From positions 124,001-188,000 of the forward strand of contig NZ_RQVN01000001.1 in assembly GCF_003992135.1 (NCBI RefSeq): a DNA stretch of 64,000 nt. The letters are read 5' to 3'. A program made the position numbers and the translations under genes. Position 1 is the stretch's first letter. Every line of letters begins with the position of its first letter. Under the pieces are notes generated by a model. It was not told the DNA's origin and did no database searches. It saw only the letters and a program-made list of their open reading frames with translations. Source of the stretch: Veillonella sp. VA142. Its GTDB lineage: Bacteria; Bacillota; Negativicutes; Veillonellales; Veillonellaceae. Positions 1 through 14,483 of the stretch are shown here, in pieces.

Positions 1-556
1 AATACGTATCCCAGCTGTCTTCACAAATAACAGGAGCAATAGTGAAAGCTCCGTGACGCGTGAAAATCGTGAGAGGCTGATTGATATCCGACAAGGATAG
101 ATTACGCTCTTTCGCCACTACATTGGCACTAGTGAAATACCGAGGTTCATTAAAGTACCGATAACAGGGCAACAAAGTTTTAATGGTAAATGGATAAGGC
201 TGAGATGGATTAGATACCAGCTGTCCTTTGGATGCTACATATAGGGCATTATATTTGCGAAGACTGCCGTCTAGATTACGGAGACTTTCATCCACACCGA
301 CATTACCAAAGATAATAGTGAGGTTTGTGTTAGTGGTAGCTTTCACAATTTCGTCACCATAGTAGAGACAATCGTTTATAAAAGGCACTTGGTCCCACAT
401 ATCACCTACCATGTATCCGCTGAGACACAATTCGGGGAAGATCAGGATGTCCGTACTCACTGCCTTCGCATAGTCGATGGCTTGTATCATAGATTGAAAG
501 TTTGTAGCAGGCTCACCAGGGTGGACCTGAATTTGACCAAAAGCAATACGAATCAT
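1..556 (-). CDS. nadE: Glutamine-dependent NAD+ synthetase, N-terminal part (runs off the window)
   Basis: Only the first 185 residues are present; the gene continues beyond base 1. The protein begins MIRIAFGQIQVHPGE and shows the nitrilase-type glutaminase fold: FPELCLSGY carries the catalytic Glu near residue 46, and PVICEDSWD carries the nucleophile Cys178. The CEDSWD context is typical of the amidase domain of glutamine-dependent NAD synthetases, which supplies ammonia to convert deamido-NAD to NAD. The start at 556 is preceded, on the minus strand, by a good TAAAGGAGTT ribosome site. The synthetase domain is outside the window, so a stand-alone nitrilase-family amidase is possible though less likely. 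The gene is divergent from the accessory island that starts at 828. Confidence 0.8.
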   Translation of the reverse strand, partial: MIRIAFGQIQVHPGEPATNFQSMIQAIDYAKAVSTDILIFPELCLSGYMVGDMWDQVPFINDCLYYGDEIVKATTNTNLTIIFGNVGVDESLRNLDGSLRKYNALYVASKGQLVSNPSQPYPFTIKTLLPCYRYFNEPRYFTSANVVAKERNLSLSDINQPLTIFTRHGAFTIAPVICEDSWDTY

Positions 557-788
557 GGGGAACTCCTTTATTGTATAGATTACAGTGTTGATAGTTATTG
601 AGTATATTATAGCATTTTATGAGGGACTTGTAGTGGGGAGCGGAAAATAAAGAAAAATTGGAGTATCTCATGTGTGAGGCCTTGTTATTGAGGAGATGGT
701 GTGTATAAGCTGTATTTGAATGAAAGATTGTGTACTGGCATGACGTAAAAATATGAGATGCATACTAGTTTTTAATTGAAAGATTAAG

Positions 789-794
789 TATAAT
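789..794 (+). promoter_or_regulatory. Candidate -10 element for the secreted-protein gene
   Basis: A consensus TATAAT lies about 34 bases upstream of the start at 828. No convincing -35 hexamer is found 16-18 bases upstream, so this rests on the -10 alone. Confidence 0.35.
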
Positions 795-827
795 GAACTC
801 ATATAGTTTTTGCTTGAGAGAGGACGT

Positions 828-1439
828 ATGTATATGAATAAATTAATAAAAGCGACAATATGCGTAGGGTTAGGCGTAGCTTTTCTAGGGGGATTTTCTT
901 CTGAAGCAAAGTTTAGCAATGTGGATTCAGCAACAATTGATTTTAAAAACTATGATAACGATTATAAGATATGGTTTAATAACGATGCAGATGAAGTGTA
1001 TATGTACCCAAATGATGGTAAGCTTGAATTGCGAGCTAAAGGAAAGAAAACACAGGTACCAACAACATTAGGGGAAGATACATTTCGGATTAGATCCTAT
1101 TATGATGTTAATCGTGATATTACTTTATATGTGATTGATGCAGGCATAAAAAATGGTAATAGAGGTACATCGACCCGTACTTTTATATATAGATATAATC
1201 GACAAGCAAAGATATGGGAGAAATTAGTAGACTCTGCTAACTATTATAGTCCGTATACAGTGCAAAATATCTATACAAGATTCGCTGAAGATTTAGGGTT
1301 TAAACACGCTGACTTTATGTTAATATTCTCGGATATGGAACATCATAAAGAAGAGTTTTGGTATCCATTAGATTGGAACAATAGTACAGGAAAAATAGAA
1401 TATCAAGCACCTCGTCAAGTTATGATTGATTATGAATAA
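828..1439 (+). CDS. Small secreted protein of unknown function
   Basis: About 203 residues (201 if translation begins at 834). A GAGAGAGG ribosome site at about 816-823 fits the in-frame ATG at 834 somewhat better than the one at 828. The N-terminus is a classic signal peptide: Lys near the start, hydrophobic core ICVGLGVAFLGGF, then a small-residue cleavage region (SSEA). The mature protein is rich in Tyr, Asp and Asn (FNNDADEVYMYPNDG) and looks like a small beta-rich exported domain, but I do not recognise a family. No lipobox Cys is present, so it should be soluble or periplasmic. It has no terminator of its own before the RNA promoter at 1455. It sits between nadE and the defence genes; a link to defence is not shown. 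Confidence 0.7.
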   Translation: MYMNKLIKATICVGLGVAFLGGFSSEAKFSNVDSATIDFKNYDNDYKIWFNNDADEVYMYPNDGKLELRAKGKKTQVPTTLGEDTFRIRSYYDVNRDITLYVIDAGIKNGNRGTSTRTFIYRYNRQAKIWEKLVDSANYYSPYTVQNIYTRFAEDLGFKHADFMLIFSDMEHHKEEFWYPLDWNNSTGKIEYQAPRQVMIDYE

Positions 1440-1454
1440 AAGATAGAACAAGTA

Positions 1455-1483
1455 TTGACAATTTGTGAAAATAGGATTATTCT
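1455..1483 (+). promoter_or_regulatory. Consensus sigma-70/SigA promoter driving a short structured RNA
   Basis: TTGACA (1455-1460), a 17-base spacer, then TATTCT (1478-1483). Transcription would begin near 1489-1491, just before the folded RNA at 1498-1537. It is one of the best promoter matches in the window and lies only about 80 bases upstream of the Abi_2 start codon. Confidence 0.75.
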
Positions 1484-1488
1484 ATAGG

Positions 1489-1547
1489 TGAGACAAACCC
1501 CCCACATCCGCAAGGACAGATATATTCTGACGTGGGGCTTTTTTTAT
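1489..1547 (+). ncRNA. Short structured RNA upstream of Abi_2/AbiF-like gene (candidate RNA antitoxin)
   Basis: About 55 nt between a consensus promoter and a T-run. It folds by eye into a closed three-way junction. P1 is CCCCAC (1500-1505) with GTGGGG (1532-1537). P2 is TCC/GGA (1507-1509, 1514-1516) capped by a GCAA tetraloop. P3 is CAGA/TCTG (1517-1520, 1526-1529) with loop TATAT. P1 plus seven T (1539-1545) also works as an intrinsic terminator, so the RNA would be made as a discrete transcript. Structured RNAs are known upstream of some abiF-type genes; from memory an abiF RNA motif has been described. Assignment to that class, and an antitoxin role, are inference. It could instead be only a terminator or leader. 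Confidence 0.6.
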
Positions 1548-1563
1548 ACTGAGAGGAAATGCT

Positions 1564-2481
1564 ATGAAAGAACCTAGATCGTTATCTTATGATGAATTGC
1601 TAGAGTTATTTTCCAAGCGTGGTATGAGTATTTCTGGAGTAAATAATTCTATTATTCAACACATAAACTATTATAAATTAAAAGACTTTGCAACGCCATT
1701 TGCTAATTATGATGATAATGGAGAATTACATTATAAAAATTTAATCTTTTCTGATATACTAAAACGGTATTATCAGGATAAAAATTTAAGATATTTTATT
1801 ATGCATGCTATTGAACTTATTGAAGTGTCTATTAAAGCAAACTTCTCACATATTTTAGGCGAAAGGTATGGTGCATTTGGTTATTTAGATTTTAACAAAT
1901 GGTATAATAGGCGAAAAATGACTCGATACACAGTTGAAAGATTACAATATCGAGTGAAGGAAGAATTGCAAAAGTCTATAAGGCGACTTGAGCATAAAGA
2001 TAATTATCATGGAAATAATTTTGATGAAGATGGTTTTCCCACAGTATGGCTAGCGATAGATTGCTTGACCTTTGGTGCAGTTGTAAAAATGTTAGACATA
2101 TTGAATGAGAAGAGTTTATTATCTATTTCTAGGATATATGGCTGTAATAATAGTGAACTGTTGTCGTGGTTAAAGTGTATTTATTTTGTTCGGAATATAT
2201 GTGCGCATAATGATAATTTAATTGACATACAGATTAAAACTAAACCAAAAATTAGAACTTCTTGGTACGATATAATCTACTATCAAGAATTTAATGGAGC
2301 GAAGAAAGCAACAAATAGATTTGCTATAATTTTATTAATTATTATGGAGTTAGTACATAAAATCAATCCAGAGTATAATTGGAGTTATCTATATCAGACT
2401 TTTAATGAGATATGCATTAATGACAAAAGCGCGAGATTATTAGGTTTTCAAAGCAAAGAAAAAGTAGAGTCTCTACTATAA
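1564..2481 (+). CDS. Abi_2 / AbiF-AbiD-like HEPN-domain protein, candidate abortive-infection RNase toxin
   Basis: 305 residues. The N-terminal third matches the Abi_2 pattern (LLELFSKRGM ... INYYKLKDFATPF, residues about 13-48). The C-terminal half carries the HEPN signature R-x4-H as RNICAH (Arg210, His215), the catalytic motif of HEPN RNases. Abi_2 proteins (AbiD, AbiF) cause abortive infection by halting the phage-infected host cell. The ATG at 1564 follows a GAGAGGAAA ribosome site. Directly upstream is a short RNA with its own promoter and terminator, the arrangement expected of an RNA-antitoxin/HEPN-toxin unit. No protein antitoxin is adjacent. The gene is rich in ATA, AGA and TTA codons. 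Family call is strong; the RNA partnership is inferred from position. Confidence 0.82.
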   Translation: MKEPRSLSYDELLELFSKRGMSISGVNNSIIQHINYYKLKDFATPFANYDDNGELHYKNLIFSDILKRYYQDKNLRYFIMHAIELIEVSIKANFSHILGERYGAFGYLDFNKWYNRRKMTRYTVERLQYRVKEELQKSIRRLEHKDNYHGNNFDEDGFPTVWLAIDCLTFGAVVKMLDILNEKSLLSISRIYGCNNSELLSWLKCIYFVRNICAHNDNLIDIQIKTKPKIRTSWYDIIYYQEFNGAKKATNRFAIILLIIMELVHKINPEYNWSYLYQTFNEICINDKSARLLGFQSKEKVESLL

Positions 2482-2503
2482 AATTTAATACATATGTAAA
2501 AAC

Positions 2504-2542
2504 ATCCCCACATGGAATCCGATTCCCATGTAGGGATATTTT
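2504..2542 (+). terminator. Intrinsic terminator after the Abi_2 gene
   Basis: ACATGG (2510-2515) pairs with CCATGT (2526-2531), and the stem continues below with TCCC/GGGA across one mismatch. It is followed by TATTTTTG. It shares the 8-mer CCCCACAT with the P1 strand of the upstream structured RNA. Confidence 0.7.
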
Positions 2543-2695
2543 TGTCAAAATATTCTTAAAATTAATGAAAAAGGATTTTTTTGAAGTATGTCGAATATGT
2601 AATAAGAAGAAAAAGTAATTGTAGGATAGTATGTGCTATCCCGTAGTGCCATAGTAATAGTATATCTTGATAATCATCGATAAGAGGAGTATGTG

Positions 2696-5248
2696 ATGGA
2701 AACAGAAAAGGATACGAAACAAACATTGCCAGACCATGTGCTAGAGTATATAGCTACCATATTTGCCTTTGATACACTATTTAATACGTTATTAGATGCA
2801 GTATATGAGACTACACAATGTAAGAAAGATGAAAGTGTAGTGCGTTCTCTATCAAATATGATAGGAGGTGTATGGTTTAGGATTCTTTTTGCAAATAATC
2901 TAGATCAGTATTCACATAATAATCGAGGTCAAGTAGATTTAGAAGGAATTGCTAGTGCTCTTACATCTGATGAAACTACTAAGGAATTCATAGACATTGG
3001 AATTTCTACTTATCAGAAAGCTATTGAAGAAACTTTTGTAGATATTTGTGAAGATGTATATTCTAGATTTTCCCAGATTGTAGAGTTAATTGGACAAGAC
3101 ACATATACTAGTACATTGTTTGTTGATTTAGAGGAATATGATGTAACAGTCACTGTGTTAACTTGTGGTTTGTTGATGCGTTCTTATTTTGATGTTATGA
3201 GAGAAAAGTTCTATGGTGAAAGTGAATATCCAGAAGACTTTCTTGACGTTCAAAAAGAGACGTGGGAGGGATTATGCTGGCTAGAAGATTCCAAGCATGA
3301 TTTCAATTCGGAGGAGATTAGACAGTTAGCTATTATGTGTCGCCATGTTCAACCACTTAGCATCGTGAGAGGTATGCAGTATGTCTATCATGGTCTGCCG
3401 AATTTATTGAAAGCACATATTGGTGGCGTAGATATATACATCGATGACCTAGTGGCTGAAAAGATAGAGGATTTAGAATACCTAGAATGTTTGCTGACCC
3501 TTGAAAAGGCTAAGGCAAAGAATTGGTTTCATAGCCAACAGAAAACGCTTATTTCTAACAGATTAGCAGAGCTTTTAGGAAAACGGATTATCATAAACAC
3601 TCCTGACATGAGTGAAGCAATCTTAGAAGCGGGACAGATACCGTACTGTCTATCCATTGAAGAAACCTTGGAGTACCTAGAGTCAAGAGAAGATGAGACA
3701 TTATATCTTAGAATGTTCCAAGTGCTTGAACTATTCCTAGAGCAAGTATTATTCTTTTCCATGAAATATCCAGCAGATATGTTGACAGAACATATTTTAT
3801 CAGGTGGTGATGATAAAGAGGAAGATTGGAAGGTCATTCGTGATTTGCAAGATGAAGAGAAAGAGGAATTTCATGTAGGCAATCTATTTGAAAGTATAAT
3901 ACTTGGGACATGTCAACCATCTCATAAGGAAAATTCTGATATAGTTGATTATACCGAAGATGATACCACAACCAATAGTGATGCTGAGTGCGATAATTAC
4001 GATAATCTGATGGATTTTTCAGATAATGACGAAGATGAAGGCTCCATAGATTTATTAGATACTAACACAGTAGAAAGTATACGGGAATTTTTTGCAGATT
4101 TGTATGAAGAGTATCAAGAGTCACGAAATGTGTTTTATGAATCATCAGATTTTGATACTTTCATCATGGATAGTACGTACATTAAACAATGTGAATATGT
4201 AGGTGGTTCAGATGTCACTTCCTATTTTAAAGTGGAAATTGATGGAGATTATTATAATACCTATTATAACTACGGTAGAGTGTATGTACGTGATCAAAAT
4301 GACCCTGTTAATTTTGATGCGGATTGGAAGACGGAAGAAGAAAATGGTGAACCTATAAGAGCTCGTATCAAAGAGAGTGAAAAAATCTATCTGTATCGTG
4401 TAAGTTATGATTTTATCTATTCTATTATGAAAGATATGATTGAATATGCTTTATCATCGTTTGAGGATATATATATAGATGGGGATTTGATACGGAAAGC
4501 AAGGGAATTGATACGGGAAGAGTGGAAACGTGTAGGAAACAAAGGTTGGAGAGCTAAAAGTCCAGTTGAGATCAATCTAAAAGTCTACAAAAAGATGTTT
4601 GAAAATATAGGCACTATCTTGATGAATTTAGTAGGAAACTTAAAGCCTAAACATCTAGAAGATTTAAAAGATTCTTTAGAAGAGAAAACAATAGATGAAC
4701 AAATTCTTGCGGGCGTTATGGGCTTGGCAAAATTAATGTATCCAATGTTTATACTGATGGTACAATCCGATGTGAATAGTGTATTAGATGAAGGGTATGA
4801 TATGTACATCGAAATACCTGAAGACACAAGTACGGAAGACTTACTGTATACGTTATATTTAGCCTTATATGCTTTTGGGAGTTATCGGACTCCTTTAACA
4901 GAAGAAAGGTGGTTTTCTAATCTTAAGAGTAAAATTGATGCATATCATCCATTAAAGAAAATAGAAGTGTATATTCAAAATGCTATGGAAGGAACGCTTG
5001 AAAGTTGGAGTACATTAAGAGAATTATACACATATATAAAATATGAGTGGGAAGAGCCATATACGTACTGCATTAACTTGAAATATCAATTGTTGAACGA
5101 TACAGATGATCTGACGGATGATGAATATGATTCGTATAATGCTATTTTCCATGCCTATGAAGGTAGCCAAGCTGGCCTTGAACGTATGGTGCGATGCTTT
5201 ATGGCGTTATATCCGGTAGTGTTGGAAATAGAAGCGGATCAAATGTAA
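2696..5248 (+). CDS. Large acidic protein of unknown function in the defence island
   Basis: About 850 residues, starting at the ATG at 2696 behind AAGAGGAG (an in-frame GTG at 2693 is the alternative). I do not recognise a family. The sequence looks mostly helical and strongly acidic. An Asp/Glu-rich, low-complexity stretch at about residues 365-460 (containing EDDTTTNSDAE and FSDNDEDEGS) separates an N-terminal helical part from a C-terminal part of about 390 residues. No signal peptide, membrane segment, Walker motif, HEPN, nuclease or helicase motif is visible. The C-terminal region has recurring helix ends with aromatic-Pro, for example LMYPMF and ALYPVV; the next gene ends in the similar SLFPAV. 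It lies 20 bases upstream of that gene and they are probably co-transcribed. Position between Abi_2 and Zorya suggests defence, without direct evidence. Confidence 0.7.
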   Translation: METEKDTKQTLPDHVLEYIATIFAFDTLFNTLLDAVYETTQCKKDESVVRSLSNMIGGVWFRILFANNLDQYSHNNRGQVDLEGIASALTSDETTKEFIDIGISTYQKAIEETFVDICEDVYSRFSQIVELIGQDTYTSTLFVDLEEYDVTVTVLTCGLLMRSYFDVMREKFYGESEYPEDFLDVQKETWEGLCWLEDSKHDFNSEEIRQLAIMCRHVQPLSIVRGMQYVYHGLPNLLKAHIGGVDIYIDDLVAEKIEDLEYLECLLTLEKAKAKNWFHSQQKTLISNRLAELLGKRIIINTPDMSEAILEAGQIPYCLSIEETLEYLESREDETLYLRMFQVLELFLEQVLFFSMKYPADMLTEHILSGGDDKEEDWKVIRDLQDEEKEEFHVGNLFESIILGTCQPSHKENSDIVDYTEDDTTTNSDAECDNYDNLMDFSDNDEDEGSIDLLDTNTVESIREFFADLYEEYQESRNVFYESSDFDTFIMDSTYIKQCEYVGGSDVTSYFKVEIDGDYYNTYYNYGRVYVRDQNDPVNFDADWKTEEENGEPIRARIKESEKIYLYRVSYDFIYSIMKDMIEYALSSFEDIYIDGDLIRKARELIREEWKRVGNKGWRAKSPVEINLKVYKKMFENIGTILMNLVGNLKPKHLEDLKDSLEEKTIDEQILAGVMGLAKLMYPMFILMVQSDVNSVLDEGYDMYIEIPEDTSTEDLLYTLYLALYAFGSYRTPLTEERWFSNLKSKIDAYHPLKKIEVYIQNAMEGTLESWSTLRELYTYIKYEWEEPYTYCINLKYQLLNDTDDLTDDEYDSYNAIFHAYEGSQAGLERMVRCFMALYPVVLEIEADQM

Positions 5249-5268
5249 TAGTGTTAGGAGTAAAACGT

Positions 5269-6117
5269 ATGTCTAAAGATAGAACGGTAGATGCTTTATT
5301 TAGAATATGGATTGAAGGCATGTACATCATGTTTACTGATATTAGATGGGAACTAGAAAAGTTGCATGCGGCAGGTGGTAGCAAGTTTCGAGATATTGTT
5401 AAAGATGTAGTATTAGGGATGATAGAGGATCAAGATAAATGGATACCATTAGATAATAAGGAGGATATCCTGCAAAAAAAGAAAGAGGTTATGGAGTATT
5501 TACATCCTTTGAAAATGGCAGTTTTAAAATTTTTGAGTAAATTTCCAGATATTGATGAAAATGAACTTACTGGAATTACCCTAGAGCTGGAAACTATATA
5601 TGAAAGTGTACAGACAGTACCTACCATGTTTTCCTATGCATATATAAAGGATGAAGTAGTAGAAAATGAAGACAATAATCAGGTATTAAAAAGCATTATT
5701 TTTAGTGATGATAAAGATAGTAATACTCAAATGCTAATGTTTTGGGAATATATCATAAAACGGTTTGCTCATAAGATTCTACAAATCTTAGATTACAGTT
5801 CTCCTAAAACAAAAGAATATCCTATTTGCTTTTTACGGATGGAAGCGATATTAGATCGTACTTTCAAGAAGTTTAGAAATGGTGAAATGCAAGCTTCTGG
5901 TTTAGAAGATTTATCTATAGAGTATGCAAGACCTGTTGACGAGGCAATAAAGAGATTTGTGCGTCATGTAGAACGGTGGATGGTATATCATGAAGATATT
6001 GATGAGCAAAAAAGGGAAGCATCTTTGGAACTTATAGAAAATCTAAAGATATTAGCAGATTTTTATTGCAGTCTATTCCCCGCAGTGATTTCTATGTCAT
6101 TTGAAAATGAAGAATAA
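5269..6117 (+). CDS. Unknown helical protein paired with the preceding gene
   Basis: 282 residues from the ATG at 5269, which has a TTAGGAG ribosome site at 5254-5260; longer in-frame starts would overlap the upstream gene and lack such a site. No recognised domain, signal peptide or membrane segment. It appears all-helical and mildly acidic. Segments resemble the C-terminal part of the upstream protein (YLHPLKMAV against AYHPLKKIEV, and terminal SLFPAVISM against ALYPVVLEI), so the two may be distant relatives or share a helical repeat; this is a by-eye impression. Together they form a two-gene unit closed by a large hairpin at 6136-6179, ahead of zorA. They could be an independent system or Zorya accessories. 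Confidence 0.7.
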   Translation: MSKDRTVDALFRIWIEGMYIMFTDIRWELEKLHAAGGSKFRDIVKDVVLGMIEDQDKWIPLDNKEDILQKKKEVMEYLHPLKMAVLKFLSKFPDIDENELTGITLELETIYESVQTVPTMFSYAYIKDEVVENEDNNQVLKSIIFSDDKDSNTQMLMFWEYIIKRFAHKILQILDYSSPKTKEYPICFLRMEAILDRTFKKFRNGEMQASGLEDLSIEYARPVDEAIKRFVRHVERWMVYHEDIDEQKREASLELIENLKILADFYCSLFPAVISMSFENEE

Positions 6118-6135
6118 AATGATGAGATAGTTATT

Positions 6136-6179
6136 ATGCCTAACGTATGTGAGCAGTGTATGCTTACTACGTTGGGCAT
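6136..6179 (+). terminator. Long near-perfect hairpin between the unknown pair and zorA
   Basis: ATGCCTAACGTA (6136-6147) pairs with TACGTTGGGCAT (6168-6179), with one G-T wobble. An inner stem GTGAGCA/TGCTTAC follows (6149-6155, 6161-6167), with a five-base loop and one bulged T: 19 pairs in 44 bases. The 3' side (TGTTGTG) is a poor T-run, so termination is likely but not certain. Confidence 0.5.
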
Positions 6180-6214
6180 TGTTGTGTATGCTCGTTTTAT
6201 ATCAGCAAATAATG

Positions 6215-6220
6215 TATAAT
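6215..6220 (+). promoter_or_regulatory. Candidate -10 element for the Zorya operon
   Basis: TATAAT preceded by TG, 54 bases upstream of the zorA GTG. Only a weak -35-like TCGTTT is present at 6192-6197, 17 bases upstream. Confidence 0.4.
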
Positions 6221-6273
6221 AAAAGAAATTCAAAGTATGATTAAAGAGGGTAAAAGCAGTAGGAGGCGTAACG

Positions 6274-8364
6274 GTGCAAGAAATTTTGAAAAGTGAATAT
6301 AATGCATATATAAGAGCGATATTTCTCACAGTAATTATAGAAGGCATCTACATATCATTAACAGGGGTTCCAAAGGGACTTAATGCTTGGGTGACGGTAG
6401 TTTTTATAGGATTTATTTTGTTTGTTGGATTCTATAGAGGTATTTGCGATTATAGTATATTGAAAGAAAATGAAACTGCCTTAGAACAATTAAAAAATGA
6501 ATTAATGAACCTATTTGAAACAGAACAGTATAGCTTTTCGGAGTTTAATTTATATAATGAAGATCGATTAAATCAAATATTAGGTGACTCTATTTTGGAT
6601 AAAGATTGGGAAGCGACAATAAGAAATGAGAAGTATTTATTACAATATAGTAAAACAGGAATAAAAGATTCTTCACAATTATATTTTACCGTTGATATTA
6701 GAGAAATATTTGATGTGGATTCAGCCTATGACAGTATAAAGTCTAATGACTTAAGAAATAATATGCCTGCTATTATGACTGGTCTAGGTATTCTGGGCAC
6801 ATTTGTAGGCTTAACACTAGGTTTATATACGTTAAACTTAAATAGTACAGGTGCTGATGGCTTGCAGACACAAATTAATAATTTGATTAGTTCATCGGGG
6901 ACGGCATTTATAACATCGTTATTTGGTATCTTGTTTTCTTTGGCATATTCTTGGAAACTAAGTTCCTTTAAGGATACTTTTTTTGATTCCTATTCTGATG
7001 TTATTGATTATCTGTACTCAAAATTACCATATTTATCAGAGTCTCAATTATTAATTGATTCAGTGAATACTTTACATGCTCAAACAAACTCAATTAATGA
7101 TTCATTAGAACTGTATGCAACTACATTGGGAGCAAGCTTATCATCTAATATTGGTGATGTGATTGAAGAAAAATTAATTCCTAAATATGATACATTAAAT
7201 GAAAATTTATTGGGTCTAAATCAAAAAATGGAAGATTTGTCTACAAACTTCTCAGAGTTTCATAAAATAACTTCTAATAGTGTAGGAGAAGCCTTAGTGA
7301 GTGGCGTCGGGTCAGAGATAGAAACATTAGGTCATACGTTACAACAATTCTCAGAAGGATTAATTGCTCATGAGAACGAAAGAAAAGCGACCTTAGAAGG
7401 GTTACAATCATCGATGGATACTATGATGAAAAATACAGAAGGATTATCGAATAGTATCTTTGAATCTATGAAACAACAGTATGAGCATACATCTCAAATA
7501 ATGGAAAATAAAATTCAACTCTCTATAGATGAATATGAAAAGATTGGTCAAAGCCAAAGAGGAGAGCTGGATCATTTTATCACTATTATGATCAACGCAA
7601 TATCTAAAAATGCAACAGAGTTACAAACTACGGCAAAACAAATGACCGAAGATATACATAAGGTTACACATGAAGGAATAACTGATATTATAGAGGGATT
7701 AAATAGTGTACTGTCAGATTCCTTGCATATTAGTAAAGGGTTTATTGCACAACAAAAAGAATCTACAGAGTCTATCAAAGGATTATCGGGTATTGTTGAA
7801 ACTGTGATGAAAGACTCTGAAGTTATTTTAGATGGGATGAATGATGCTATGAAAGAAACTAAGAATGTGCTTACGGAAGTAAAAGATTCAAGTGGATTAA
7901 TTACCCGTAATATTCAGGGCTTAACTACATTAAATGGTAATTTAATTACCTACGAAGAAAAAATGAAAACATCCATACAGGCAATGGAAGCCACGTTAAT
8001 GAATTATCAACAAAGTTTACAAAGTACGCTGACACCATTGTTAGAAGGATTAGAACGCGTAACTTCTGTAACAACAGTGGGAGCAGAAGAAATGCGATTA
8101 ACCATTAAAGAGCTTGAAGAACTTTGGCAAGATCATGAACAATCCTATAGTAATTTTACGGCACAACTACAAGATGTATTTACTCTTATAAATGAAAATA
8201 TAAATGGGACTTATAATGATTTACATACTAATTTAAACACTACATTACGAGACTTCGATTTGGCTATGGGTAAAGGTGTTGAAGGATTGAAAACATCTAT
8301 TGCAGACTTATCTGAAAGTAAAGAAACCTTAAAAGAGTATTTAGATAAGCGATTAAAACACTAA
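6274..8364 (+). CDS. zorA: ZorA, MotA/TolQ/ExbB-like motor subunit of type I Zorya
   Basis: 696 residues from a GTG start with AGGAGG at 6261-6266. Two hydrophobic segments (about 13-31 and 38-56) are followed by a soluble stretch, then two more (about 165-187 and 208-230). The third, MPAIMTGLGILGTFVGLTLG, is the MotA/TolQ/ExbB signature. The remaining roughly 450 residues form a long predicted helical tail rich in Glu, Lys, Ser and Thr. ZorA forms a five-subunit ring around the ZorB dimer in the inner membrane, and its tail projects into the cytoplasm to signal invasion by phage. It is the first gene of a tight four-gene operon; zorB starts 18 bases after its stop. Gene order and domain content identify the system well. 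Confidence 0.93.
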   Translation: MQEILKSEYNAYIRAIFLTVIIEGIYISLTGVPKGLNAWVTVVFIGFILFVGFYRGICDYSILKENETALEQLKNELMNLFETEQYSFSEFNLYNEDRLNQILGDSILDKDWEATIRNEKYLLQYSKTGIKDSSQLYFTVDIREIFDVDSAYDSIKSNDLRNNMPAIMTGLGILGTFVGLTLGLYTLNLNSTGADGLQTQINNLISSSGTAFITSLFGILFSLAYSWKLSSFKDTFFDSYSDVIDYLYSKLPYLSESQLLIDSVNTLHAQTNSINDSLELYATTLGASLSSNIGDVIEEKLIPKYDTLNENLLGLNQKMEDLSTNFSEFHKITSNSVGEALVSGVGSEIETLGHTLQQFSEGLIAHENERKATLEGLQSSMDTMMKNTEGLSNSIFESMKQQYEHTSQIMENKIQLSIDEYEKIGQSQRGELDHFITIMINAISKNATELQTTAKQMTEDIHKVTHEGITDIIEGLNSVLSDSLHISKGFIAQQKESTESIKGLSGIVETVMKDSEVILDGMNDAMKETKNVLTEVKDSSGLITRNIQGLTTLNGNLITYEEKMKTSIQAMEATLMNYQQSLQSTLTPLLEGLERVTSVTTVGAEEMRLTIKELEELWQDHEQSYSNFTAQLQDVFTLINENINGTYNDLHTNLNTTLRDFDLAMGKGVEGLKTSIADLSESKETLKEYLDKRLKH

Positions 8365-8382
8365 TAAATTGAGGTATCATTC

Positions 8383-9135
8383 ATGAAATTCATAAAACGA
8401 AGTAAATCTAGTAAGCGTAATGATCCTTTTAGTATATCTATAAGTGATTTGATGGCTGGCATTTTGATGATTTTTATTTTGGCTTTGATTTCCATGTTTT
8501 TTATTAATAAAAGTGAGAATGAACGCAATAATCATCAAGTGGAACAACGGAAAGAAATATTAGAGTTCATGCAAGATTTGCCGGAAGCGAAATCAGGCAA
8601 GATTACGATTGATGCAGAAAATGGAGTTATTCTTATAACTACAAATGATTCAGGTGGAAACAATAAGGAGAAAACACCTATTTTTGAATCCGGAGAGTCA
8701 AGGTTAACGCCGGAAGGGGAGAAGTTAATTAGGGCTATAGCCGCAAAAATTGATGACAGCAGAAATAAGAAAAAAGAAGCATGGCAATCCATTGATACGA
8801 TTATCATTGAAGGACATACAGATAATGTGCAGTATAATGATCCTAGTTCCGATAAAAATAACCTGAAATTATCTGTAGATAGAGCGATCGCTACTTATAA
8901 GGTTACTTTAAACGCTTTATCTTTAAATCCAGAGAATCCAAACCAAGATATAGCCAATAATACTAACAGTAATGTTGTTAATAAATGGAAGAATGCTGAT
9001 GATCAGTTTATATTTTCTGTCGCTGGATATGGTGAAAGTCGTTTAATTAATAAGGCAGCTCCTAGTAGTGCTGAAAACCGTCGCATTGAGTTTAGATTTT
9101 TACTGAAACATCATAAGATAAAGGATTTAAAATGA
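8383..9135 (+). CDS. zorB: ZorB, MotB/OmpA-like peptidoglycan-anchored stator of type I Zorya
   Basis: 250 residues. A short basic N-terminus is followed by one membrane helix (about 20-42). Asp22 in ISDLMAGIL is the expected proton-carrying residue of the ZorAB motor. The C-terminal half is an OmpA-like peptidoglycan-binding domain: IIIEGHTDNVQ, then the SVDRA helix, and GYGES with the closing NRRIEFRF. ZorB anchors the complex to the cell wall and, with ZorA, converts ion flow into movement of the ZorA tail. Its stop overlaps the zorC start by four bases (ATGA), indicating translational coupling. Confidence 0.93.
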   Translation: MKFIKRSKSSKRNDPFSISISDLMAGILMIFILALISMFFINKSENERNNHQVEQRKEILEFMQDLPEAKSGKITIDAENGVILITTNDSGGNNKEKTPIFESGESRLTPEGEKLIRAIAAKIDDSRNKKKEAWQSIDTIIIEGHTDNVQYNDPSSDKNNLKLSVDRAIATYKVTLNALSLNPENPNQDIANNTNSNVVNKWKNADDQFIFSVAGYGESRLINKAAPSSAENRRIEFRFLLKHHKIKDLK

Positions 9136-10535
9136 AAAAGCTATTTTCACTTGATATAGCAAAATCTAAATTAAAATATAATTTTCATAGACCTAAAGAA
9201 ATCATATTAGCCACCCATCAATTTGAGGAGGTATCTGAGATTCTTATAGAGTCAGAAGCTGAAAAAGATGAACTATATGATACATTTGTAACATTTCAAA
9301 CTGCATATACATATGACGTTTTAGATTATGAATTACCACGTAGTGATATAAAGAAACTTTGTACTTTATATATTAATAGAGATATATTGCGCTCCATTAA
9401 AAAAGATTACTTTCATAAAAATTTTGATGATTTTTTGTGGAAGTATATAAAAGATAATCTGCATAAAGTATTGTCCTATGCAATTAATTTGTATATTCAA
9501 ATACGGGATTATAGTCGCGAGTATGTACAACGATTTGGAAATCTTATTGTAGAATGTCTAAGTGTCAATACACAAGAACTACTTCGACCTTGGCGAGAAG
9601 CTAATTTTATATTCAGCCCAAATGCGAGTCAAATGATAGCTGATAAGTTTTTTGAAAATCAAAAATTCGATGAGGTATTAAGAGAACTACCGTTTTCTAA
9701 TGAAATGCAGTTACAGTCTCCAATTCTGTTGAATGCCGTTAGGTTAATTTTCAATAGTAGCATATTCATAGGGAATACTAAAATTTTGATGCTACGGGAT
9801 ATTTTTAAAGGGGAACGGTATCGAGAAATTTTGCCAGAATGTATTACTGCAATATGCCAAGATGATATTATAAAAAATAATATGATAAAAAAAGAACTTC
9901 CTACGGAAGATACATATATGCATCAATTGATTAATTTTTTGGTAGAAAAATGGGGAGATCCAAGACAATCGAATTTTAATGATAATGGGTGGAGATTTCT
10001 TGATAACCAACTATTAAGTTATTTGAGATTTATATTTGCAAAGTCTGATTTAGAATTATTTATGATGATTATGGCTAAGTGTCATAAAGAGACAAATTGG
10101 AAATATCGAGAAAAGTTTTGGAATGCCTATTTAAAATATGTGAGAAGGACTAGAGTATTCTTAACTGATGAAGGGGCATATGAAGCTCGTCGTTATATGC
10201 TAGATAACCCTAATAAGCAATTGTATTATGGAGAAATTTCAAGAGATAAATCGATGATTCTTTTAGAGTTTGATGACTTTTATATCGTTGAATGGAGCCA
10301 TAGTGGTAAACTTTTAATTTTAACAGATTTAAATAAGTATCAAGTAGAAGCTATTTTTTCATCTATGAGTATGCGGGAAGAAAATATGAAAAAGCCTGGA
10401 TATTATTATGCATGGAATAATGTAGTAGATGAGATAGCACATTCCTCACCAGATACATACAGTTGGCAACGTAAAGTAGAAACTATATTAGAAGATAAAT
10501 TTAATTTAATTCCAACGCAAAGTTATCGTTTATAG
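9132..10535 (+). CDS. zorC: ZorC, EH-signature protein of type I Zorya
   Basis: 467 residues, starting inside the zorB stop. Little can be read from the N-terminal two-thirds, which look helical. The C-terminal part carries the EH signature that names the family: FYIVEWSHSGK with Glu387 and His390, preceded by a conserved-looking REKFWNAYLKYV. ZorC is a DNA-binding cytosolic effector partner that acts with ZorD. Its presence, with a SNF2-type ZorD and no HNH ZorE, makes this type I rather than type II. zorD follows after nine bases. Confidence 0.87.
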   Translation: MKKLFSLDIAKSKLKYNFHRPKEIILATHQFEEVSEILIESEAEKDELYDTFVTFQTAYTYDVLDYELPRSDIKKLCTLYINRDILRSIKKDYFHKNFDDFLWKYIKDNLHKVLSYAINLYIQIRDYSREYVQRFGNLIVECLSVNTQELLRPWREANFIFSPNASQMIADKFFENQKFDEVLRELPFSNEMQLQSPILLNAVRLIFNSSIFIGNTKILMLRDIFKGERYREILPECITAICQDDIIKNNMIKKELPTEDTYMHQLINFLVEKWGDPRQSNFNDNGWRFLDNQLLSYLRFIFAKSDLELFMMIMAKCHKETNWKYREKFWNAYLKYVRRTRVFLTDEGAYEARRYMLDNPNKQLYYGEISRDKSMILLEFDDFYIVEWSHSGKLLILTDLNKYQVEAIFSSMSMREENMKKPGYYYAWNNVVDEIAHSSPDTYSWQRKVETILEDKFNLIPTQSYRL

Positions 10536-10544
10536 GAGTACGCT

Positions 10545-13500
10545 ATGTGGACAGTTACAGAGGAAGCATATGAAATTGACAGCTCAAAGCTTTCTGATTA
10601 TGGTAAACAGTTAGTAGATGAATATTTTTTATATTCAAAACATGGTGAAAATGGACAGAATATCTATTTATTACCGCATGATATAGCGGTTAACCTTTCT
10701 TACGAAGATCAAGCAACTTTACAACTACCACTTAGATATAGTTTTAATTTAAACCTCACTAATACTGGAAGTATTATTAGAGAAATGGGGTTCAAAGTGT
10801 GTCTACAGGATATGACTGGACATGAAACTTCTGAATATTTGAGAAAGGGATCCTATATTCGGTTTCGTGACGGTAAAGAATACATTTTATCTGCGCCGCA
10901 CTATAGAGTGTTTGAAATCGTCGAATATTATGATAGAGAAATTAGAGCAAAACAAGATAAAGATGAAAAAATATACCAGAACTATATATCGATATCTGAA
11001 ATACAAGAGTTTTCCAATGATTTATCTATAGGTGTAAGCGAAACTATAGGTAGTAAACCTGTTATTTCTCCAGGAAAAATGTCTATTAATATAGCGCCTA
11101 ATGAAGATGAGACATACAGCTTTAGGATAGACTTTGAAAACAAAGATATCAACGAAGAAATCAATAAAAATCTACATAAAAGAGGTTGGGGAGATCCTCA
11201 GAAACGTTATGCCTTTGATCCAGAACAAAGAGAAGCATTAAAAACTATAGAATCAATCAGTAAAAAATTTGATAAAGAGAAAGCTCAACGTATTATTAAG
11301 CAGGCTGATACCTATTTCCCATTTGAAGGACCAAGTGTAGATATTGAAGGTATTGATGGACTATCAGAACGTGTTGTTGGTATTGGCGAGTTCAAGGGTC
11401 GATTTATTCCAACAGATATGATGCATACCGAATGGGTACCTGAAGGATTATCCGGGGTTGAAAAAACTGGTGGTTTAGAATCTAGAGAAAATAATGAAAA
11501 AGTATTACTTATTAAGGATAATCTAGATGATTCAGATGTTTTTATTACGGAAACCCCGCATCCACGAGATAAAGATGATATGACAATTGATATTCTGAAA
11601 CCAGATATTACATTAAAATCATATCAGAAAAAAGGTGTATCTTATTTGCAAGAATTATGGATAAAGGGTTATAAAGGGGCGCTATTAGCAGACGATATGG
11701 GGCTAGGGAAAACGCTACAAACATTGGCTTTTTTATCGTGGCGAATAAAACATGATCAGTATAAAGAAAAGCACCCTATTTTGATTGTTGCACCAGTAAG
11801 TTTGTTGCAAAATTGGAAAGAGGAGTGCTGTAAATTTATTGATACCTCTTGTGGTATTGGAGAGCCTTTAATTTTACATGGTAATACACTAGAACCGTTT
11901 AAACTTAATACACCACCTCCATCTCTATTGAGAAAGTATGGGCAGTTATCTGATGATGAACTAAAAGACAATGCCTTTTTAAATACAGATAGAATTTGTA
12001 AATATTCGCTAGTTATTACAAATTATGAAACGGTGAGAAAATACCAACTTTCACTAGGTGTCATCAAATGGAATATGCTGATTTTAGATGAGGCGCAAAA
12101 TATAAAGAATCCTTCCAGTAGGGTTAGTCATGCAGTACGTGGTATGAATTATGATTTTGGGCTAGCATTAACAGGTACGCCAGTGGAAAATTCTTGGGTC
12201 GATTTGTGGACCATTATGGACTTCTGTAGTTCTGATAGATTTGGAACATTACAGGCCTTTAATAAGGAATATATTGCACCAGTTTCTAAAGCCGAAGGAG
12301 ATATATTGGTGTTAGAAAAAAAGGGACTTGAACTTAAAGAAAAGATAAAACCCTTATTATTAAGACGAATGAAGCAAGATGTATTATCTGAGTTACCGGT
12401 TAAACATGAGTTGGTGGTACCACGATATATGTCAGATTATCAAGAGACTGCATATATGGATGTAGTGAATCAAGCAGGACGTGCCAATAAAGGAGCTTTT
12501 GAACAACTCATGCAGCTGCGTAATGTTTCTATACACCCATACTTGATGTTTTCAAAGAAAAAATTTTTAGAATTACCTTTTGAAGAGCATTTAAAAGTTT
12601 CCGATAAATTACAATTTTTGTTTGAAACCTTAGATGATATAAAGATGAAGGGTGAAAAAGCTCTAATTTTTATTAGATATAAAAAGTTACAAGAGTTAAT
12701 TAGAAAACTTTGTAAAGAAAGATATGGAGTAGAAATTTTACAACCTATTAATGGGGACATGAAAGGAGAACGCAGACAAGCAACAGTTAACGAATTTAAT
12801 CGGACTTGTGGATTTAATGTGTTGATACTTTCACCAGAAGCTGGTGGAGTAGGTTTAAATATAACGTCGGCCAATCATGTGATTCATTTAAGTAGAGAGT
12901 GGAATCCAGCAAAAGAAGATCAATCCACGGACAGAGCTTATAGAATTGGTCAGACAAAAGATGTATATGTATATTATCCTGTTGCAACATTAAAACATTT
13001 TAATCACCCTAGTTTTGATGAATTACAACATGAACTATTAACAAGAAAACGTAAGTTGAGTAGATCAGTTATTGTACCTAATAGTGCTAGTGAAACAGAT
13101 GGAGCGTCGTTGTATAATTCTCTATTTAGTAAGGATTACACGCAATCCACTAGTTATGTTGAAACAAGTGAAAATAAGGATATGTTAGAGATGTATGACA
13201 TAGATAATATGGCTGAAATTTTAAAAGCTATTTATCGAAAAAAAGGATACACCATTGATGATAAATTTAGGGATGAAAGAGTTGATGTACTCTATACTCA
13301 GAATAATGAATATCATGGCATCATTTTAGTCAATGAAGCAAAACTATCCACAGTAACAGTTCACCCTAGAAAATTTGTTGCTGACATAAAAAAATCTCTG
13401 AATAGAAAAAAGAACGTGAGTGCAGTTACGCTAACCTTATGTGGAATTGGAGATATAAGTAAAAAGCAAATTGAGTCATTACGTATTTTTCAATACTTTG

Positions 13501-13592
13501 ATGACATATTAGATGTGACGGATGTAAGACAAGCACTTAAAGAAAATAATATGAAGCGATCAGATTATATTTCTTATTTAACTACTGAATAA
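10545..13592 (+). CDS. zorD: ZorD, SNF2-family helicase with Mrr-like nuclease tail, type I Zorya effector
   Basis: 1015 residues. The first 340 or so are family-specific and unrecognised. A SNF2 ATPase follows: Walker A in DDMGLGKTLQT (about 382-392), DEAQ at about 515, ALTGTPVENS, then the second RecA-like lobe with SPEAGGVGLNI and DRAYRIGQT. The last 130 or so residues resemble an Mrr-like PD-(D/E)xK nuclease: RVDVLY with Asp914, then ILVNEAK with Glu931 and Lys933. ZorD is the DNA-attacking effector of Zorya. The helicase motifs are clear; the nuclease assignment rests on the D...ExK pattern only. It ends the operon; no T-rich terminator hairpin is evident in the 96 bases before the next gene. 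Confidence 0.9.
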   Translation: MWTVTEEAYEIDSSKLSDYGKQLVDEYFLYSKHGENGQNIYLLPHDIAVNLSYEDQATLQLPLRYSFNLNLTNTGSIIREMGFKVCLQDMTGHETSEYLRKGSYIRFRDGKEYILSAPHYRVFEIVEYYDREIRAKQDKDEKIYQNYISISEIQEFSNDLSIGVSETIGSKPVISPGKMSINIAPNEDETYSFRIDFENKDINEEINKNLHKRGWGDPQKRYAFDPEQREALKTIESISKKFDKEKAQRIIKQADTYFPFEGPSVDIEGIDGLSERVVGIGEFKGRFIPTDMMHTEWVPEGLSGVEKTGGLESRENNEKVLLIKDNLDDSDVFITETPHPRDKDDMTIDILKPDITLKSYQKKGVSYLQELWIKGYKGALLADDMGLGKTLQTLAFLSWRIKHDQYKEKHPILIVAPVSLLQNWKEECCKFIDTSCGIGEPLILHGNTLEPFKLNTPPPSLLRKYGQLSDDELKDNAFLNTDRICKYSLVITNYETVRKYQLSLGVIKWNMLILDEAQNIKNPSSRVSHAVRGMNYDFGLALTGTPVENSWVDLWTIMDFCSSDRFGTLQAFNKEYIAPVSKAEGDILVLEKKGLELKEKIKPLLLRRMKQDVLSELPVKHELVVPRYMSDYQETAYMDVVNQAGRANKGAFEQLMQLRNVSIHPYLMFSKKKFLELPFEEHLKVSDKLQFLFETLDDIKMKGEKALIFIRYKKLQELIRKLCKERYGVEILQPINGDMKGERRQATVNEFNRTCGFNVLILSPEAGGVGLNITSANHVIHLSREWNPAKEDQSTDRAYRIGQTKDVYVYYPVATLKHFNHPSFDELQHELLTRKRKLSRSVIVPNSASETDGASLYNSLFSKDYTQSTSYVETSENKDMLEMYDIDNMAEILKAIYRKKGYTIDDKFRDERVDVLYTQNNEYHGIILVNEAKLSTVTVHPRKFVADIKKSLNRKKNVSAVTLTLCGIGDISKKQIESLRIFQYFDDILDVTDVRQALKENNMKRSDYISYLTTE

Positions 13593-13635
13593 AACTATTT
13601 ATTGAGATAATTATCATCAAATATCCCGTTTTCCA

Positions 13636-13644
13636 TGCTATAAT
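13636..13644 (+). promoter_or_regulatory. Extended -10 promoter for the nucleoside phosphorylase gene
   Basis: TGCTATAAT, a perfect extended -10, lies 44 bases upstream of the start at 13689. The -35 region is poor, as is usual for extended -10 promoters. It marks the return to housekeeping genes after the defence island. Confidence 0.55.
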
Positions 13645-13688
13645 AAATTCATACAGATATTTTTCTATCTTTCACAAGGAGGAACTAT

Positions 13689-14483
13689 ATGTCAGCTATT
13701 GCTATTATTGGTGGTACCGGTGTGTACGATCCAAATATGTTTGATACGATGACGGAATCGTCTTTGATGACGCCCTATGGTGAGATTCATTATGTATGTG
13801 GAACCTATGAGGGCAAGACGGTATACTTCTTAGCTCGTCATGGTCGTGATCATTCGATTCCACCACACAAGATTAATTATCGCGCCAACATTTGGGGCTT
13901 GAAAAAGTTAGGTGTTAAGTTCATCGTATCTACCACAGCGGTAGGTTCTTTGGATGAGAACTTTGGACCTGGTCATTTTGTGTTGACTGACCAGTTTCTA
14001 GACTTTACGAAGAACCGCGTGAATACATTCTACGAAGGTGGGGACCGTCCAGTGGCACATGTGGATGTGACGAATCCATACAGTCCTGAGTTGCGCGGTA
14101 TTGTTGAAAGCGCCGCAAAATCCCTAGGTTTAACGGTTCACAATGGTGGTACGTACGTATGTACAGAAGGCCCTCGTTTTGAATCTCCTGCTGAAATTCG
14201 CATGTATGCTATGTTAGGAGGTCAAACGGTGGGTATGACGAACGTACCAGAGGTGACCTTAGCGAATGAAGCGGAAATGGCATATATGACAATTTCCATG
14301 GTCACAAACTACGCAGCGGGTATTTCTGAGTCTGCTTTGACGCATGCTGAAGTGGTGGACATGATGCAACAAATGGCAGACCAATTACAATCGCTTGTAA
14401 AAGAAGTCATCAAGGGCATCGATGTAAATGCTGATTATCCTGCTCATCATCGTATGGCTGAGTATGGTGGCTTTCAATTATAA
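13689..14483 (+). CDS. mtnP: MTA phosphorylase-family purine nucleoside phosphorylase, probably 6-oxopurine/MTI type
   Basis: 264 residues, full length for the MTAP/PNP family. The phosphate-binding start AIIGGTGVYD, the RHGRDHSIPPHKINYRAN block and TEGPRFESPAEI are all present. The family cleaves methylthioadenosine or related purine nucleosides with phosphate. At the base-recognition loop, MTAP has two Asp residues (TDYDCW in the human enzyme); here the loop reads TNYAAG with Asn207 and Ala209. Asn there is typical of enzymes that use 6-oxopurines such as methylthioinosine, inosine or guanosine. The symbol is therefore provisional. It sits 32 bases before adenosylhomocysteinase, consistent with salvage of S-adenosylmethionine by-products. 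The start has AAGGAGG at 13677-13683. Confidence 0.82.
   Translation: MSAIAIIGGTGVYDPNMFDTMTESSLMTPYGEIHYVCGTYEGKTVYFLARHGRDHSIPPHKINYRANIWGLKKLGVKFIVSTTAVGSLDENFGPGHFVLTDQFLDFTKNRVNTFYEGGDRPVAHVDVTNPYSPELRGIVESAAKSLGLTVHNGGTYVCTEGPRFESPAEIRMYAMLGGQTVGMTNVPEVTLANEAEMAYMTISMVTNYAAGISESALTHAEVVDMMQQMADQLQSLVKEVIKGIDVNADYPAHHRMAEYGGFQL

What the first reader, a model, noticed from the sequence alone, without database searches (positions are those of the whole stretch)
2696..6117. Unknown two-gene unit (850 and 282 aa) between Abi_2 and Zorya
Both proteins are helical, acidic and lack any motif I can name. They are spaced 20 bases apart, sit inside a run of defence genes, and appear to share short features (HPLK, aromatic-Pro helix ends such as ALYPVV and SLFPAV). 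The large protein has a central Asp/Glu-rich linker that may mimic nucleic acid or separate two modules. Genes of this kind between known systems are good candidates for an undescribed defence system or a Zorya accessory module.
Basis: inference. Interest (0 to 1): 0.62.

Follow-up and report, generated by a model that had tools for sequence, protein, structure and literature searches.

The report
Orphan gene pair in defence hotspot
Next to two known phage-defence systems in a Veillonella genome sits a pair of genes of unknown type, found so far only in a few related Veillonella, whose front half stays similar while its back half and its partner gene differ together between strains, as in systems that must keep changing to recognise an enemy; what the pair does has not been tested.

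Summary
The two genes are real and as described: BIG (2696-5248, 850 aa, pI 4.3) and SMALL (5269-6117, 282 aa, pI 4.9), 20 bases apart. They match no Pfam, NCBIfam, PADLOC or PHROGs family significantly and were found only in the own genus (Veillonella): SMALL in 4 of 380 class genomes, BIG in 3 of those 4. They lie in a hotspot between an NAD synthase gene and a phosphorylase gene (mtaP). That site holds Abi_2+pair+Zorya (window, G005), Abi_2+pair+type III-A CRISPR (G002), CRISPR without the pair (G006), a SMALL relic (G004) or no defence gene (G003). So the pair is not an obligate Zorya part, although both intact copies accompany Zorya. New here: the pair is a mosaic. Between window and G002, DNA of BIG residues 1-385 is about 88% identical, while everything from the acidic linker through SMALL falls to 56%, with near-saturated synonymous divergence: BIG's C-terminal region and SMALL behave as one variable cassette behind a shared front. 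SMALL is predicted as two four-helix bundles; BIG's C-terminus may share that layout (low confidence). Best reading: an undescribed, lineage-restricted anti-phage or toxin-partner unit. Function is inferred; I found no catalytic motif.

The parts
2504..2537 (+). hairpin between Abi_2 and BIG followed by a short T-run; similar hairpins stand at the site without defence genes in G003 and on the mtaP side in G002
   Evidence: fold -18.5 kcal/mol, z -3.6; the consensus terminator scan did not list it, so its role as terminator is inference
2696..5248 (+). BIG, 850 aa orphan protein
   Evidence: no significant family match
2696..3850 (+). BIG residues 1-385, shared (constant) N-terminal module; lies in the block 2445-3856 of 87.7% DNA identity window-G002; dS 0.28
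3851..4081 (+). BIG residues 386-462, acidic linker of variable length; 3' boundary of the shared block (change point 3856)
4082..4396 (+). BIG residues 463-567, variable, partly beta in a low-confidence model
4397..5245 (+). BIG residues 568-850, variable helical domain; predicted helix order like SMALL (low to middling confidence)
5269..6117 (+). SMALL, 282 aa, predicted as two four-helix bundles; two allele classes 30% identical
6136..6179 (+). strong hairpin between SMALL and zorA, possibly the end of the pair's transcript (inference)
   Evidence: fold -28 kcal/mol, z -3.9; one search lists a different, overlapping terminator-like site at 6173-6194

Best explanation
A two-gene, lineage-restricted defence-type unit of Veillonella, unrelated by sequence to known families. 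BIG has a shared N-terminal module joined through an acidic linker to a variable helical C-terminal region, and SMALL varies together with that region. Shown: the two genes, their presence in one genus only among the genomes searched, the hotspot, an island younger than its host species, the sharp boundary at the linker, two deep allele classes, purifying selection. Inferred: SMALL binds the C-terminal domain of BIG, which may have the same double-bundle layout; this variable pair senses a phage cue or holds BIG in check; and the N-terminal module executes the response, so that the infected cell stops growing or the phage is blocked. Defence as the general role: about 0.6. This specific mechanism: about 0.3.
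For: Site between NAD synthase and mtaP with different defence contents in six genomes (gene names checked). Island younger than the species: window-G005 dS 0.008 (ZorD), 0.04 (BIG C), 0.07 (Abi_2) against 0.53 (mtaP) and 0.67 (ahcY). Shared/variable split: window-G002 change points 2445 and 3856, identity 70.1/87.7/56.2% before/inside/after, log-likelihood ratio 220.8 against at most 10.2 in 20 shuffles (shuffles scanned on a coarser grid); dS 0.28 in BIG 1-385 against 1.61 in BIG 568-end and 1.61 in SMALL. SMALL model pLDDT 83.7; SMALL and BIG 570-840 each align over about 225 residues to PDB 3d19 (Z 7.8, rmsd 6.0; Z 7.1, rmsd 8.5). Abi_2, the other neighbour, occurs without the pair elsewhere, so the pair is a unit of its own.
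Against: No activity, catalytic motif or homologue outside the genus was found. Only three BIG and four SMALL sequences exist in the data. The BIG model is poor (pLDDT 38); the Z values lie in the range that helical bundles reach by chance, 3d19 is only rank 20 for SMALL (higher rows cover about 125 residues), and sequence comparison of BIG with SMALL is negative. The shared block could reflect one recent gene conversion rather than a constant function. Abi_2 is as divergent in G002 (dS 1.45), so divergence is not special to the pair. BIG in G002 carries an in-frame stop and SMALL in G004 is a relic, so the unit is dispensable.
Confidence: 0.45

Rival explanations
1. Polymorphic toxin-partner (toxin-antitoxin or toxin-immunity) pair: the variable C-terminal region of BIG is toxic and SMALL is its cognate antidote; the shared N-terminal module targets or regulates it.
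For: Shared front, variable C-terminus and an adjacent faster-diverging small gene 20 bases downstream (C 51%, SMALL 30% aa identity between classes) is the layout of such systems (recalled). In G004 only SMALL is left.
Against: No known toxin or immunity domain in family searches and no hydrophobic N-terminal stretch in BIG. The two C-terminal classes are homologous, not unrelated. SMALL in G004 is itself a relic with a stop codon.
Confidence: 0.22
2. Zorya extension: the pair supplies an extra function to this Zorya variant.
For: Both intact copies (window, G005) sit directly upstream of zorA; the pair is damaged in the two other genomes that hold part of it, which lack ZorB (G002, G004).
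Against: G002 carries the pair beside type III-A CRISPR without a ZorB match. 156 bases with a hairpin separate SMALL from zorA. The BIG profile matched none of the 16 other ZorB-positive genomes of the class at E up to 0.1, and none of 10 such loci inspected shows such a pair. Between window and G005 BIG 1-385 and SMALL differ more than ZorD.
Confidence: 0.2
3. Non-defence passenger of the hotspot (for example a selfish or counter-defence module carried with the island).
For: Orphan genes without assigned function; decay in two of the four genomes that have any part of the pair.
Against: Signs of purifying selection over the deep split of the two classes (dN/dS 0.25 in BIG 568-end, 0.43 in SMALL, window-G002, with dS near saturation); repeated location inside a defence hotspot.
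Confidence: 0.13

Closest known systems
Type I Zorya (zorABCD)
   Same: Directly downstream in the window and in G005, same island
   Different: BIG and SMALL match no Zorya model; the pair occurs without ZorB in G002; not seen at 10 other Zorya loci inspected
Polymorphic toxin / immunity pairs such as CdiA-CdiI (recalled, not compared by a call)
   Same: Shared N-terminal part, variable C-terminal part that differs together with the small gene just downstream, the small gene diverging faster
   Different: No export domain found, no known toxin or immunity domain, and the variable domains are homologous to each other
Abi_2 / AbiF abortive infection with RNA antitoxin (PMC12373285, abstract and section list seen)
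   Same: Neighbour upstream in the three loci that hold BIG
   Different: Separate unit with a structured RNA before it; orthologues occur without the pair in G003, G021, G026
Bacillus cereus metalloprotein PDB 3d19 and its like 3dby
   Same: Near-whole-length layout match of SMALL (226 aligned, Z 7.8, rmsd 6.0) and BIG 570-840 (224 aligned, Z 7.1, rmsd 8.5)
   Different: 8% and 4% identity; Z in the chance range for helical bundles; no Foldseek E below 0.19 in the PDB for SMALL; metal binding not shown

Membership tests
Zorya component | Match to a Zorya protein model | tested here: not met
   No PADLOC or NCBIfam match for BIG or SMALL at E up to 1
Zorya component | Obligate linkage to zorAB | tested here: not met
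   G002 has the pair and no ZorB match at E up to 1e-15; caveat: BIG is stop-interrupted there, and 2 of 2 intact copies are Zorya-linked
Polymorphic toxin-immunity pair | Constant N-terminal part with variable C-terminal part plus adjacent variable small gene | tested here: met
   rests on three sequences and perhaps one exchange
Polymorphic toxin-immunity pair | Secretion or export domain on the large protein | tested here: inconclusive
   No family match; the most hydrophobic 19-residue stretch of BIG scores 1.83 and lies at residue 670, not N-terminal; no signal-peptide program was available
Polymorphic toxin-immunity pair | C-terminus toxic, small protein neutralises it | not testable with these tools
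   needs expression experiments
HEPN RNase | Conserved R-x4-6-H in a four-helix bundle | tested here: inconclusive
   One invariant match in BIG (R225-H232); shuffled BIG sequences have 1.4 on average. SMALL's two matches are not conserved
3d19-like double-bundle protein | Same fold | tested here: inconclusive
   Z 7.1-7.8 over about 225 residues, rmsd 6-8.5, within background for helical bundles
Known anti-phage system with these genes | Protection against phage | not testable with these tools
   experiment needed

The most novel reading that the evidence does not exclude
An undescribed intracellular immune system built like a polymorphic toxin: a constant executing module in BIG joined by an acidic linker to a variable domain whose structural twin, SMALL, is its cognate partner; domain and partner are exchanged together between strains by recombination at the linker and in the hairpin after Abi_2, so that recognition specificity is swapped while the executing part stays.
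Probability: 0.25. Interest if true: 0.72.

Novelty: new variant of a known kind. Interest (0 to 1): 0.45.

Why it matters
If the pair defends, it is a defence unit that the family libraries searched here cannot see (no model matches), and its shared/variable split names the part that changes and the border at which modules can be swapped. It also shows that Zorya, type III-A CRISPR and this pair come and go at one Veillonella site between an NAD synthase gene and mtaP, a ready place to look for further systems in that genus.

Tried and rejected
Homologues elsewhere: plasmids, phages and IMG/VR (13, 29) gave none; a pattern scan of GTDB contigs, made with SMALL only, gave only the two known relatives, Veillonella sp. 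3891 and VA139. Profile searches gave strong matches only in the genus: BIG 3 of 380 class genomes plus 7 weak ones at E up to 0.1 (27); SMALL 4 of 379 plus one weak; BIG in a phylum sample the own genome of 398 plus two weak. Of these ten weak matches (at most about 15 bits) I looked at one only (G209; it lies in an ORF with a GTPase-like start by my own reading); the other nine were not examined. IMG/VR and GTDB scans need exact short peptide patterns, so distant relatives could be missed. The metagenome collection could not be scanned.

PDB sequence searches gave nothing meaningful (best E 0.043, an antibody chain). Fold searches of SMALL: best Foldseek E 0.19 in the PDB and 0.16 among viral models. 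The second look at BIG (62) rests on a poor model. A fold that Foldseek ranks low could have been missed.

BIG and SMALL as sequence paralogues: not supported (profile-profile E 0.047 over 20 columns, probability 1.1%; local alignments within shuffled range; end-free alignments best z 2.2 and at BIG 100-400, z -0.4 at the C-terminus). Kept only as a layout hint from the models.

HPLK as a shared motif: rejected. Linker as nucleic-acid mimic: not supported. Abi_2 as third member of the unit: rejected, since Abi_2 orthologues occur without the pair in G021, G026 and G003. Rfam: no relevant match in window 1-14000. Promoter-like sites in 1400-6400 (19 found) are fewer than in shuffles (27.1 on average), so none is evidence by itself.

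Script faults: the search for the stop position failed and the two BIG pieces of G002 were taken from the ORFs; the BLAST labels stayed blank because the script took the wrong record as window, so only its ORF lists and profile scores were used (best E 0.0035, SMALL profile, in a small set and with filters off, in a long ORF upstream of zorC that I take for a ZorA piece; treated as noise). Two of the ten loci there are cut short by contig ends (5.8 and 9.0 kb).

For mtaP only the phosphorylase superfamily is shown; the narrower name is recalled. 'Secreted' for the 203-aa gene at 828-1439 is my reading of its N-terminus.

Full report
The observation. Both are acidic (pI 4.3 and 4.9) and of lower G+C (34.8 and 32.4%) than mtaP (44.8%). 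Neither matches PADLOC, Pfam, NCBIfam or PHROGs significantly. The neighbours are an Abi_2/AbiD protein and zorABCD with type I models as best matches.

Who has it. The window lies in a genome of 1.97 Mb. Two relatives that carry the pair bear names in GTDB: Veillonella sp. 3891 (same contig as G005) and Veillonella sp. VA139 (same contig as G002). BIG was found in 3 of 28 genomes of the family and SMALL in 4 of 380 of the class, all in the own genus. Profile searches of 380, 379 and 398 genomes added only weak matches of at most about 15 bits. Plasmid, phage and IMG/VR searches were empty.

The site. In six genomes of the genus the stretch beside mtaP differs. Window and G005: Abi_2, BIG, SMALL, Zorya. 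G002: Abi_2, BIG with one in-frame TAG, SMALL, then type III-A CRISPR-cas with arrays. G006: type III-A CRISPR-cas with a Csm6, no pair (Cas names). G004: a SMALL relic lacking its start and with a stop. G003: about 1 kb with only a small gene for a protein with a signal-like start. An NAD synthase gene bounds the other side in the window, G005, G006 and G003; in G002 and G004 it lies on another contig. ZorB has no match at E up to 1e-15 in G002, G003, G004 and G006. So the pair is not an obligate Zorya part; but it is intact in 2 of 2 Zorya-bearing genomes of the genus and damaged in the 2 others that hold part of it, which leaves that rival alive.

Mobility. Between window and G005 synonymous divergence is 0.53 in mtaP and 0.67 in ahcY but 0.008 in ZorD, 0.056 in ZorB, 0.16 in ZorA, 0.22 in ZorC, 0.038 in BIG 568-end, 0.07 in Abi_2, 0.17 in SMALL, 0.25 in BIG 1-385 and 0.31 in BIG 386-567. 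The simplest reading is that the island, or pieces of it, was shared between species after they split.

The mosaic. Between window and G002, DNA identity is 70.1% through Abi_2, rises to 87.7% from 2445 to 3856, and falls to 56.2% from there through SMALL (two-change-point fit, log-likelihood ratio 220.8; at most 10.2 in 20 shuffles scanned on a coarser grid, profile). Synonymous divergence is 0.28 in BIG 1-385, below that of mtaP (0.52), but 1.61 in BIG 568-end, 1.61 in SMALL and 1.45 in Abi_2. The left border lies at the end of Abi_2 beside a hairpin whose like (79-81% identical) stands at the site without defence genes in G003 and on the mtaP side of G002; the right border is the start of the acidic linker. 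BIG's C-terminal region and SMALL therefore form two old allele classes that differ together behind a shared front: class A in window and G005, class B in G002 and, for SMALL, G004 (88.4% DNA identity to G002 over 662 bases). With three BIG sequences this may be a single exchange; and since Abi_2 is about equally diverged, the shared block can also be read as one recent conversion of the front. Where dS was finite, dN/dS lies between 0.17 and 0.54, so the proteins are maintained. Window and G005 differ most in BIG residues 1-100, around the linker and in the second half of SMALL.

Structure. SMALL is predicted with good confidence (pLDDT 83.7, pTM 0.82) as eight long helices, two four-helix bundles. 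The BIG model is poor (pLDDT 38); its best part, 566-850, repeats the helix order and roughly the helix lengths of SMALL by eye. Both have PDB 3d19 as near-whole-length match (Z 7.8, rmsd 6.0 over 226 residues; Z 7.1, rmsd 8.5 over 224), though for SMALL nineteen rows rank higher, most of them over about half its length. Such Z values occur by chance among helical bundles, and sequence comparisons of BIG with SMALL are negative. I treat a common layout as plausible but unproven.

Mechanism. Most likely, in my judgement, SMALL and the variable domain of BIG bind each other and form the part that recognises a cue or keeps BIG inactive, and the shared front executes a response that protects against phage. 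No step beyond the anatomy is shown. Rivals are a toxin-antidote pair, a Zorya extension and a passenger; see the fields above.

Literature. A search for papers naming both Zorya and Veillonella gave 1 listing; Veillonella with defense systems, phage and anti-phage gave 3; none of these four was opened. A search for Zorya with accessory gene or defence island gave 37 papers, 20 listed; of these I saw passages of one, PMC11890865, which describe Zorya I to III: ZorA and ZorB with other partners, among them ZorE in type II and ZorF and ZorG in type III. From a search on AbiF and Abi_2 (17 listed) I saw the abstract and section list of PMC12373285: an Abi_2-family AbiF protein neutralised by an associated RNA. 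I found no description of this pair in these searches of open papers, which is not proof that none exists.

Noticed in passing
window 1455-1546, upstream of Abi_2 (1564-2481): A short structured RNA candidate (stem 1500-1537 plus T-run; -17.6 kcal/mol, z -2.8) with a promoter-like site (10 of 12) directly before Abi_2; the same element stands before all six Abi_2 orthologues inspected (window, G005, G002, G003, G021, G026). In a five-sequence alignment two of 13 pairs show a change on both sides, in one sequence, and one pair is broken in one sequence. In position it resembles the RNA antitoxin of AbiF (PMC12373285); no Rfam match. More distant Abi_2 matches were not inspected.
   Followed up: partly
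L023 12449-12509 (G006); L010 17715-17762 and, less alike, 10929-10979 (G002): Copies of the same RNA element (83-88%, the third 76%) stand beside arrays of type III-A CRISPR loci; in G006 there is no Abi_2 match in the genome. Possibly an orphan or CRISPR-linked RNA antitoxin.
   Followed up: partly
L010 8894-9983 and 15796-16851 (G002): A cas1 segment and a CRISPR array occur twice, on both sides of Abi_2-BIG-SMALL; each cas1 copy is split into two ORFs, while G006 has one ORF of 377 aa.
   Followed up: no
window 10545-13592: ZorD is 99.7% identical between window and G005, whose mtaP has synonymous divergence 0.53: recent transfer of Zorya within Veillonella.
   Followed up: partly
window 2504-2537; L024 1895-1958 (G003); L010 1860-1925 (G002): The hairpin after Abi_2 is 79-81% identical to one at the site without defence genes in G003 and to one on the mtaP side in G002: a possible homology anchor for exchange of cassettes.
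   Followed up: partly
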